This document shows positions 5,856-10,437 of a DNA stretch of 64,000 nucleotides, one piece after another; positions within the stretch are counted from its first letter, which is position 1, and the number at the start of each line of letters is the position of its first letter. The notes below the pieces were generated by a model, which saw nothing but the letters and a program-made list of their open reading frames with translations, was not told the DNA's origin and ran no database searches. The position numbers and the translations under genes are program-made. The stretch is from Pythium myriotylum (Eukaryota; Oomycota; Peronosporomycetes; Pythiales; Pythiaceae), in assembly GCA_023091665.1 (NCBI GenBank), contig JALJCQ010000017.1, positions 1,736,001-1,800,000 on the forward strand, written 5' to 3'.

Positions 5856-8800
5856 TTACCCGTGCTTCAGCATGTGGGCTGCGTCGTTTAGCAACGTCGA
5901 GCGAGATATCACACTTTGCTTGAGTAGTTTCAGAAAATGTGCGCTTGCCACATCGTTTGTCAAGTCAAGTTGGAGTTGGGTGCGTAACCAGCTAATATCG
6001 TCTTCAGTTTGGAGCTCAGGCAGAGCGCTTCGAGTCATAATCGAACACATACCATAAAGGAGGCCTGCATGCATTCGAAGAATATTATAGCCGTCGCAGC
6101 ATAGCTGAGTGAACAACTCACACGCAGGGATTGTCAGTTGATCTGTACATAGTCGCGACGGAAGCCGGAGAGATCCATGGATAGTTTGTTGCCACTTGAG
6201 TCGTCGACTCTCAAAAACCTCGTCTCTAACTGAGCGAGTTTGTGCCCAGTTCACTGGCTGATTCGGACTGATATCCATAATAGTGCTTGGTGAGTCTAGA
6301 TGGCAACTCTTGCTATGCTTTGTGTGCTTCAGATGTTTGAGGAAGAACTTTTGACGCTTTCTCGCTCCATCTTGTGACGATCGAGCATCATAGGCTGTCG
6401 ATGATGGGAGCGACGACGTCAATTCTTCGGCTTTTACACTTGTGTCCGACATGAGGATCGCCGCGAACGAAGGAGTGAACACGAACATTGTTCGCTCGCG
6501 TCTCACGCCAAACTTGGTTTTGAAATTACCCAGGATGTGGCCGAAATCGATGTGAAAAACACTCCCAGTCCGCGACATCATAATGTTGTCGTTGTGGCGA
6601 TCTCCGATCCCAAGAATGTAACTTGCAACACAACTCGCTGCGCAGCTTCCTGCGAAAGTGCGCACCGCATCACCATAGCTGAAGAGACCTGACGGCCTTT
6701 TGTTCGCGGAAGACTGATCGTGAACTGAAGATGAAGGTTGCAATTTGAGAGGTGGTCGACTGAAACTATCGAGTAGATTTGGAGCCACAGAGTTCGACAG
6801 CAGCCATTCGGCCAACACATTCTGCTCCCTCATCACTCCGATTGCCGAATGCAGTTTGTGTTGGGCGGTACCTCGCTGGGAACCATGGTTTTGCTGAGCT
6901 CGCCTGCTGAATATACTTGCAATTGTCTCTGCATCTCGAACAATCTCAATCAAGCCGCACTTCGGACCAACCGAGACGCAACCGTACGTTATCAGACGCA
7001 TTCTCTCACTTAGACCTGCACCTTTCCAAACGTGATTCATGACTCGAAAGAGCTGAAGGACGAGCTGATCCTGACGAAGATCGTCCCCTGACTTGTAGAG
7101 AACGTGGAAATGAGACACTACGCTGACTGCCCCTTCCTCATGCACTTCTCGAAATACAAGATACAAAGGCTTCTGCTTTGATCCGAGGACACGGCACTCA
7201 TCGACAACAACCCCACATAGCTTTCGTGTAGGATCAAGCGGAAGAACGAATTCACCTGGCAACACCATGTCTCGGAGACCAGACCGTAGCTTTGCCTGCT
7301 TATCTTCTGTTGAGTCGCACGAGATGAGGTTTTGGTGGATTCGACGGATCTGTTTAGCAACTGATACCTGAGATCTGAGATTTGTTCTATCGAGGTTGCT
7401 CAATGCTCTAACGTACACATCTAAGAGGAAGATGTTACGTTCGCAAACTTGAACGTCATGAATCTCTGAGTACAACAACCAAAAGAATTGATGTCCATGT
7501 GTGAGCGGAGACTCGAGACAGCGGCGAAGCAGGAATCGGGCCAAAGCCGAGTCGTGATATCTTTCGTGACGCAATGCATGCACCAGCTGAAGGAGATACA
7601 ATTCAGTATCTAGATCTTCCAGACATCTAACAGCAAAAGCTCGTACTCGTGCATCTGTAACACGGGGCCCAAGCAAACGCAATGAAACTTCAGGATGAGC
7701 AACTAGCTCCAAGCTATCGAGGAGACGGTAGGCCTCTGAACGACTCCAAGGATCCTTCCAGTTGATCGCATGCAATACGCTCGGCAGCAAACGAGGGTAG
7801 CGAAGCACCATGTGCCGACTGTGCCATATCATCTTCAATTCTGCAGTTGTTGGAGAGTAGAACGGGTCAGTAGCCAATTTCGTCGTTAACACGTCTATCT
7901 CTTCTTGATTCGGTGCTTTCGGAAGAGGTAGTGTGCTTGTTCCATTCCCGTCCAACTTCGTCTGCGCACCCTTGTTTCCGCTCGACTGGTCCCGAACACG
8001 TGATACTGAGCCAGATTGTTCAGTAATCTCAAGTTCGATAACACAATGGGACTCGGGATTTTCGAAGCCTGACTGGGGAACTTTCCCTTCAATATAATTC
8101 ATCCCAGTCCACAAACTCAACCACACCGTTTCCGACCATAGAGCACAGTTTTGGTTAAAGAGATTAAATCCACACCAGCCGAAAAGTATCGGCTCCCCAG
8201 AAGAGGCACCGACTGCTTTTGGTAGAACTTCCTCGTCATTTGCACCCACAGATTCAGCGACATCATTGTTGAAGTCTGCTCGCGATCTCGCAGTCCTGCT
8301 CGCTACCACATCGCAGTTTGTAACACTGGTGAATCCACTGAACAAGGATGAACGCCGACGCAGCCCCTGACTCGCCACGGGAGGCTTAGGATCAATGCGA
8401 AAGTCAACAATAACTCGCGTAGCTGGAGGAAGCCGCCCAGCTACGCAAGAATCTGGCCAATTGACGACATCCGGAAAGTCGAAGCGAGCAATATCACCCT
8501 GCATGTTCATGGTATTAGAAGCAATCGAGGAGGAACCTTGATAAAGTGTCTCAACACCGTCTACTAGCTTCATGGATATGGTGACCCGCAATCCAGTTAA
8601 AAGCGAGGGTCGAATCATTGAAACTGGAACGCAGAAGTTGTTGACATGTAGGGAGAAAGGTGTCATGGCTTCACTCAACGTCACATCCGCCAAACTGCAA
8701 GTGAGTCGACTGAGGACAACGCCATGCATTCGTCGGATAACGGACTTGATAAGACGAGCATGTGCCTCAGTAAATTGATTTGTCTTGTGTGCGAGTTGGA

Positions 8801-10437
8801 TAATGACCGTTGTAGCTGACTGAGTTGGCGACTGCTCCGATGAGCTTGATGAAAACGTCGAAAGAAACTCGTTGTCCGCACCAATATCAACAGATGAGTC
8901 AAATATCGTATCTTCTGACAGCTTTCGTGGGTAATGGTCGAGTCCATGAGTAGCGGCATACCCAGCGATACCTTTTACCGGAAGATTCCCAACGGCATGC
9001 GCCAGGGAGCCGATAGGAAGAATTCGTGTCATCTTGCTTGCACGCCGGTCAACAATGAACAATGCTAGATTGCTCACGGACATGTGCGACCCAACAACTC
9101 GCATCATATTTTGCAGCACAGATATGAGTGGGACGTCATTAACATCAAGTTTGAGCAACTCCAACTGGAGACTACTCATACCTGGCTCTCCATCGTGTCT
9201 TTCGTTTAAAGTGACGAGATCTTGGATATGTTGGATATGTTCATAGAGTTGACGAAACTCGTCCAACTTCCGCAGATTGGGAATTCGTCCACCAAGAAGT
9301 AACGTCGTATCTGCAAGCGCTATCTGAATTGCTCCCTTCTTGATTTCTACGCACAACGCAACTGTCTGGGCACGAACGGATGCTGTTCGTCGACCATGCG
9401 TGGATGGATCGATCAACGCTTGCTCGCCAAAGAACGCGGGACCAACTAATACTCGCTCAGTTAGCGTGCTTCCTGAAGGTGACTTGTCTGATTGACTGAT
9501 TGGTCTTGCTGACTCTAGCACAATACCAGTGGATAGATAAAAGAGAGTGTCTCCCGGTTCACTCTCCTCAAATATTGTGTCACCGCCTTGGAATGTCTTT
9601 AGTGCACAAGCTCCCGAGCTACAGAGTCGAGTAAGGTGGTCATGGGTGAAGTCCTAACATCCAGAACAACGTTTATTAGCTTGAGCACAGCTTATCACTC
9701 AGGTTGGACTCACTTGTTACCTGGAAGAAAGGGAGTCGATACAGTATGTCGACTACATTGGACACTCCATCAGTCGGGGCGTTGTCACCGCGTTGAGTTG
9801 TGGCATTGAGAGCTGGCTGCATTGAGTGTGTCGCCTCAATGGGATCGTTCACAACCTCGATACTGCAGTCACGGGTCGATGACGTATTACAACGAGAGAA
9901 GATTCTTTCCGAGCAGCAGCTCGTTTGTTTGCCTTGAGAAACATGATCAGATTCAGAAGCATCTTGTTCCAGAGCCTCAACGCAGCACGTGGAGTTGATG
10001 TCAAACTGTTTCTTAGAAGATATCACGCCACTGTCTTGGTATGGAGAACTGCAGCTTGCCCAGTTGTCCTCCACAACATTTGCCAATTTCTGGTGCCCCT
10101 CACTATGTTCTTCCCACTCGGTCTCTGACCGCTCCGATACGATTTCCGATTGCGTCACAGAACATTGTTGATGAATAGCGCGTGCTTTCGCGTCCTTGGC
10201 CAGGCGTTCCAGAGCCTTCCATCGCGTTGCAGCACTAAAAACCTCATAACTCGGCTTCTCCAAAACGCTCTGCAACTTGGCATACAGGATATCAGCGTCT
10301 TGGTCACTCTCGGACGCCTGGTTCCCTGACGCTTCGCGTCGAGCCACATTGGGCTCGCCGTCCTCTGGTCCTGGCTCAGCCTTGCCGACGCTCGCGCGAC
10401 GGAAAGCGAGCCGCAGCGACTTGGCGGCGCTGAGCAT
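5856..10437 (-). CDS. Phosphoinositide 3-kinase with N-terminal cNMP-binding and GAF domains
   Basis: Exons 9721-10437 and 5856-9653, joined across a 67-nt intron, encode 1504 residues. In order there are: an acidic N-terminal region (1-240); a cyclic-nucleotide-binding domain (about 245-365) with the FFGEQAL phosphate cassette and RRTASV arginine; a GAF domain (about 395-560); a PI3K-type C2 region (about 565-765); the helical PIK domain (about 810-965, containing FWLLYSEIH); and the catalytic domain (about 1025-1480). The catalytic domain has SGDDLRQDQ, GIGDRHNDN and FHIDFGHILGNFKTKFG, all catalytic residues present. The activation loop resembles class I enzymes that make PIP3. No p85- or Ras-binding domain is seen, and I infer control by cNMP or another small ligand. 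The ATG at 10435-10437 has a GCC context. Confidence 0.9.

What the first reader, a model, noticed from the sequence alone, without database searches (positions are those of the whole stretch)
5856..10437. PI3-kinase with cyclic-nucleotide-binding and GAF domains
The 1504-residue kinase carries, before its C2, helical and catalytic domains, a cNMP-binding domain with the phosphate-cassette Glu and Arg intact (FFGEQAL...RRTASV) and a GAF domain. Animal class I PI3Ks have adaptor- and Ras-binding regions there instead. Inference: this oomycete enzyme couples cAMP/cGMP or another small ligand directly to PIP3 production.
Basis: partly seen in the sequence, partly recalled or inferred. Interest (0 to 1): 0.8.

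Follow-up and report, generated by a model that had tools for sequence, protein, structure and literature searches.

The report
Cyclic-nucleotide-sensor PI3-kinase of stramenopiles
A water-mould gene encodes a PI3-kinase with two built-in small-molecule sensor domains ahead of its catalytic core, where animal enzymes have Ras- and adaptor-binding parts; the same layout recurs in other stramenopiles and suggests a direct, still untested, link from cyclic nucleotides to lipid signalling.

Summary
Exon 1 (10437-9721) and exon 2 (9653-5856), minus strand, joined over a 67-nt GT-AG intron, encode 1504 residues: cyclic-nucleotide-binding domain (CNB; Pfam 1.6e-8), GAF, C2, helical and kinase domains. 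Pfam misses the GAF in this copy; a family profile and the predicted fold show it, with a divergent second half. It is no one-off: 61 of 140 listed homologues carry a Pfam CNB; nine of the 61 bear an organism name, all stramenopiles. 52 of the 61 keep the phosphate-cassette Glu and Arg, as the window does. The activation loop is of class I type. A full-length model of a relative aligns with class I PI3Ks from just after the CNB to the C-terminus. The same genome holds a sister PI3K that keeps the CNB shell but lacks the cassette, as do the 16 other oomycete sequences aligned with it, and two PH-RBD PI3Ks. Best reading: a cyclic-nucleotide-regulated, class I-like PI3K. Ligand and regulation are inferred. 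Ten paper searches found no description; one relevant paper could not be read.

The parts
9721..10437 (-). exon 1: 239 aa without Pfam domain; its last residues DILYRLPFFQ begin the CNB domain
   Evidence: continuity with P0001 across the junction; a short N-terminal motif (DILYAKLQSVLEKPSYE / DDLHRELREVLSAPKYE) resembles P0001 by eye and regex only; BLASTP finds nothing significant
9654..9720 (-). 67-nt intron, GTAACAAG...TTAG
   Evidence: no RNA data
5856..9653 (-). exon 2: 1265 aa and stop
9324..9599 (-). cyclic-nucleotide-binding domain (Pfam stretch, exon-2 residues 19-110)
   Evidence: 1.6e-8; family profile 1e-13 in 145 sequences with the window not in the seed; Foldseek matches to PKG, PKA-R and HCN
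9375..9431 (-). phosphate-binding cassette FGEQALIDPSTHGRRTASV with Glu77, Arg89 and Thr90 of exon 2; three residues longer than in the four relatives
8691..9194 (-). GAF domain (exon-2 residues 154-321), second half divergent
   Evidence: family profile; fold; not found by Pfam
8064..8684 (-). PI3K-type C2 domain (exon-2 residues about 324-530, with a low-confidence stretch 427-484)
7395..7913 (-). helical (PI3Ka/PIK) domain
   Evidence: 1e-37
5859..7109 (-). PI3/4-kinase catalytic domain with DRHNDN (6585-6602) and class I-type activation loop DFGHILGNFKTKFGVRRERTMFVFT (6474-6548)
6123..6455 (-). insert of 111 aa just after the activation loop; inserts in the same place in P0001, P0002 and P0003

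Best explanation
A class I-like phosphoinositide 3-kinase whose activity or membrane engagement is set directly by a small ligand bound to an N-terminal CNB domain, with the GAF as second sensor or docking module. SHOWN by sequence and predicted fold: one gene, domain order CNB-GAF-C2-helical-kinase, intact cassette Glu/Arg and catalytic motifs, class I-type activation loop. INFERRED: cAMP or cGMP binds the CNB (the Thr after the cassette Arg leaves cGMP possible); binding moves the C-terminal helix of the CNB and the linker helices that follow, which in the model of a relative appear to align with the segment between adaptor- and Ras-binding domain of class I p110; this relieves (or imposes) inhibition and so changes production of 3-phosphorylated phosphoinositides, probably PIP3.
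For: Pfam CNB above cut-off, helical and kinase domains. 61 of 140 listed homologues have a Pfam CNB; the nine with organism names are stramenopiles (taxonomy; MAST-4 by its record name); Pfam re-runs confirm CNB, GAF, helical and kinase in 8 of 9 CNB members scanned, P0103 lacking the GAF. 52 of 61 keep cassette Glu and Arg, next residue A 25, T 15, S 5, N 4, others 3. Activation loop close to that of a p110-beta-like row, unlike class II and III rows. Model of relative P0047: pLDDT 83.8, pTM 0.84; residues 139-1110 align to p110-delta 112-1027, rmsd 2.3 over 673 residues. The genome has matches to class III cyclases (PF00211, 33, five at E below 1e-46), PDEase_I (14) and PTEN_C2 (3), matches being exon pieces, not genes. 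In the sister clade the cassette is lost while the rest of the CNB is kept.
Confidence: 0.55

Rival explanations
1. The CNB and GAF are structural or protein-docking modules with no ligand: they stand in front of C2 and keep the core in shape or recruit partners.
For: The other oomycete clade keeps a recognisable CNB shell without the cassette (none of 17 aligned rows keeps FGE...R) and has intact kinase motifs; bolidophyte-type members lost the Arg; the window GAF is degenerate.
Against: 52 of 61 CNB-bearing relatives keep both ligand residues, which pure scaffolding would not require; the window keeps them although its CNB and GAF have otherwise diverged.
Confidence: 0.25
2. The CNB binds a small ligand other than cAMP or cGMP, for example a purine nucleoside or another nucleotide, as known for some protist PKA-like proteins (recalled, no call).
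For: Three extra cassette residues in the window protein; variable residue after the Arg.
Against: Glu and Arg, the usual ribose and cyclic-phosphate contacts (recalled), are intact; the genome has many cyclase and phosphodiesterase matches.
Confidence: 0.15
3. Gene-model artefact: a CNB gene and a PI3K gene wrongly joined.
For: No RNA data here.
Against: Nearly all of the CNB, the GAF, C2, helical and kinase domains lie in one 1265-aa open frame, and independent genomes and transcriptomes show the same order.
Confidence: 0.02

Closest known systems
Animal class I PI3K catalytic subunits (p110 alpha, beta, gamma, delta)
   Same: C2, helical and kinase domains; class I-type activation loop; best solved-structure matches by sequence (for the window, for the family profile) and, for P0047, by Foldseek
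   Different: No adaptor-binding (PF02192) or Ras-binding domain (PF00794) found in the window protein; CNB and GAF stand ahead of C2 instead
Cyclic-nucleotide-binding domains of PKG, PKA-R and HCN channels
   Same: Fold and cassette Glu/Arg; a GRRTASV stretch like that of HCN channels (HCN sequence recalled)
   Different: Attached to a lipid kinase, not to a protein kinase or channel; cassette with three extra residues
GAF domains of PDE2/5/6/10
   Different: The window copy keeps only the start of that stretch (IFDSSVD)
Oomycete PI3Ks of Phytophthora, Pythium, Albugo and Aphanomyces (clade with own paralogue C23)
   Same: Same catalytic type and a vestigial CNB ahead of it
   Different: Cassette lost; separate clade in the trees

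Membership tests
Class I PI3K catalytic subunit | PI3Ka helical plus PI3/4-kinase domain | tested here: met
Class I PI3K catalytic subunit | class I-type activation loop and catalytic DRHNDN | tested here: met
   DFGHILGNFKTKFGVRRERTMFVFT against class I, II and III rows
Class I PI3K catalytic subunit | PI3K C2 domain | tested here: met
Class I PI3K catalytic subunit | Ras-binding domain (PF00794) | tested here: not met
   no hit at E up to 1; the paralogues C12 and C9 do have it
Class I PI3K catalytic subunit | adaptor-binding domain (PF02192) | tested here: not met
   no hit at E up to 1
Class I PI3K catalytic subunit | converts PIP2 to PIP3 | not testable with these tools
   inferred from the activation loop only
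Cyclic-nucleotide-binding domain | profile score above curated cut-off | tested here: met
   34.8 bits against 27.5
Cyclic-nucleotide-binding domain | cassette Glu and Arg | tested here: met
Cyclic-nucleotide-binding domain | binds cAMP or cGMP | not testable with these tools
   no experiment
GAF domain | Pfam GAF profile score | tested here: not met
   eight relatives score 5e-7 to 1e-18, P0103 has no hit
GAF domain | GAF fold | tested here: met
Cyclic-nucleotide-type GAF | complete FDxxVDKxTGxxT...P stretch (motif recalled) | tested here: not met
   window keeps IFDSSVD only

The most novel reading that the evidence does not exclude
Stramenopiles possess a lineage of class I-like PI3Ks gated directly by cyclic nucleotides through a CNB (and in many members a GAF) that stand, in chain order, where animal p110 has adaptor- and Ras-binding domains, so that cAMP or cGMP controls PIP3 without kinases, G proteins or Ras in between; in oomycetes one paralogue keeps the switch while the other has lost its ligand cassette and runs unswitched.
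Probability: 0.45. Interest if true: 0.88.

Novelty: new variant of a known kind. Interest (0 to 1): 0.72.

Why it matters
In animals cyclic nucleotides reach PI3K through intermediates such as PKA, Epac and G proteins (recalled). A single polypeptide joining a cyclic-nucleotide sensor to a PIP3-type kinase would be a direct crossing of two major second-messenger systems, spread over a large eukaryotic group that includes thraustochytrids, marine flagellates, algae and water moulds. It also offers natural controls: relatives, and a paralogue in the same genome, in which the ligand cassette has been lost while the rest of the CNB is kept.

Tried and rejected
Artefactual fusion: rejected (one open frame; same order in independent sources). 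Sensor region without relatives: (window residues 1-560 alone) found none at E 1e-5, probably because candidates must share exact short words; two searches found them. Exon-1 homology to P0001 by BLASTP: nothing significant; only a short motif by eye and regex. NCBIfam: nothing above cut-off. Literature: ten searches, of which I saw the listings with abstract starts, and term look-ups inside five papers (PMC3019232, PMC9694693, PMC3823935, PMC4617754, PMC3024228), of which I saw term counts and passages only; none describes this architecture. Meijer and Govers 2006 (MPMI 19:1337), a survey of Phytophthora phospholipid-signalling genes seen only in a reference list, is not held and may hold relevant gene lists. 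Ligand identity from the residue after the cassette Arg: not decisive. A single gain of the sensor: not proved; the node joining all CNB-bearing PI3Ks has 0.65 (FastTree) and UFBoot 31, and the place of P0006 differs between the two trees. Loss of the window-type gene in other oomycetes: not shown; see the full report. Fold evidence for class I over class II: not decisive.

Full report
Gene and domains. On the minus strand, exon 1 (10437-9721), a 67-nt GT-AG intron (9720-9654) and exon 2 (9653-5856) give 1504 residues. Three splice choices stay in frame; the 9720 donor is the one that gives a CNB start colinear with a relative (ILYRLPFFQDFTHDHLTRL beside LLAIPMFQSLTDEQLSSL). Pfam on exon 2 finds cNMP_binding (1.6e-8, above its cut-off), PI3Ka (1e-37) and PI3_PI4_kinase (7.8e-48), a sub-threshold C2 (0.16) and no GAF. 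Sequence search of solved structures ranks PI3K gamma and alpha first.

How widespread? The first search returned 24 proteins, 4 of them with Pfam CNB and GAF (P0001, P0004, P0005, P0006). A profile of pieces of these four returned 3172 proteins at E up to 1e-20, of which the best 120 are listed. The two lists hold 140 different proteins, 61 with a precomputed Pfam CNB. Nine of the 61 bear an organism name: Lagenidium giganteum, a MAST-4 stramenopile, Triparma strigata, Cafeteria roenbergensis, Thraustochytrium sp. LLF1b, Hondaea fermentalgiana, Mucochytrium quahogii, Chrysophaeum taylorii and Aureococcus anophagefferens. Eight were looked up and are stramenopiles; MAST-4 is called a stramenopile in its record. 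Pfam re-runs confirmed CNB, GAF, helical and kinase in P0001, P0004, P0005, P0006 and P0047, P0033, P0048, P0068; P0103 showed a CNB but no GAF.

Ligand residues. Aligned with a CNB profile built from 45 relatives chosen for the motif (so biased towards it), of all 61 Pfam-CNB proteins 58 keep the cassette Glu and 52 keep Glu and Arg. The nine without Arg are five of the Triparma group (P0033, P0034, P0035, P0040, P0066) and P0072, P0073, P0076, P0085. The window keeps both, with Thr next; the 52 have Ala in 25 and Thr in 15. The window was not in the seed and scores 1e-13 in a search of 145 sequences. Its CNB is nevertheless weak: 34.8 Pfam bits against 52-73 in the eight cassette-intact relatives scanned.

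A natural contrast. The own genome holds a paralogue on contig C23 (L021) whose CNB shell is recognisable (4.4e-9 with the family profile; Pfam 0.0032, below cut-off) but whose cassette is missing. Of 17 sequences of that clade aligned here (C23 and 16 from Pythium, Globisporangium, Phytophthora, Plasmopara, Nothophytophthora, Albugo, Aphanomyces and one unnamed source), none keeps FGE...R; in 16 the segment is simply missing, in Aphanomyces it is replaced. P0092 was in the alignment but misaligned and is not counted; ten further clade members (P0095, P0098, P0104, P0106, P0109, P0111, P0118, P0127, P0129, P0132) were not given to that call. In the trees the window groups with P0002 (1.00) and these two with Lagenidium P0001 and P0003 (1.00; UFBoot 100 and 100), apart from the C23 clade, so the two look like old paralogues, although deep nodes are weak. 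C23 lies next to P0127 and Pythium oligandrum P0087 (1.00), which suggests a Pythium-like host. No window-type orthologue from the named Phytophthora, Pythium, Globisporangium or Albugo proteomes appears, but one search lists only 120 of 3172 hits and leaves out even P0001 and P0006, which were in its profile; so loss in those species is an open question. Two more PI3Ks of the genome (L022, L023) carry PH and Ras-binding domains.

Catalysis. The Lys of YKSGDDLRQDQL, DRHNDN, DFG and a basic activation loop (NFKTKFGVRRERTMFVFT) match class I rows (NKKKKFGVRRERVPFVLT in a p110-beta-like row) and differ from class II and III rows. PIP3 as product is inferred from this.

Verdict. The structure of the finding is confirmed and extends to a family found in several stramenopile groups; the direct cyclic-nucleotide switch is the best-supported but untested reading. 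Ten literature searches found no description (listed under Tried and rejected); individual proteins are visible with these Pfam domains in the database searched, so what seems new is the family view, its class I-type core and the cassette loss in the sister clade.

Noticed in passing
L023 4093-8847 (own genome C9): A PH-RBD-PI3K whose last open frame (7495-8847) runs from the end of the PI3/4-kinase domain straight into a protein kinase domain (PF07714 1.3e-24): a possible lipid kinase-protein kinase fusion; the junction between the two open frames was not checked.
   Followed up: partly
window 6123-6455: Insert of 111 aa after the activation loop, with inserts in the same place in P0001, P0002 and P0003; a PRR[KR]WQ...SLR-like motif recurs in all four (window: SRRLKWQQTIHGSLR), a KSC motif followed by an aromatic or His in some.
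   Followed up: partly
P0082, P0103 (pelagophytes): CNB-PI3Ks with an N-terminal endonuclease/exonuclease/phosphatase-family domain (PF22669; precomputed for P0082; P0103 only 1.4e-4, below cut-off), possibly an inositol phosphatase joined to a PI3K.
   Followed up: no
P0068 and other members: An N-terminal WW domain is added to the CNB-GAF-PI3K architecture (P0068 PF00397 2.7e-9; precomputed in others).
   Followed up: no
own genome C29:267118-510398: A cluster of 20 weaker PF00211 (cyclase) matches in short open frames of about 350-680 aa.
   Followed up: no
own genome: 134 PF00027 matches, many in large open frames with several copies: CNB domains are abundant in this genome.
   Followed up: no
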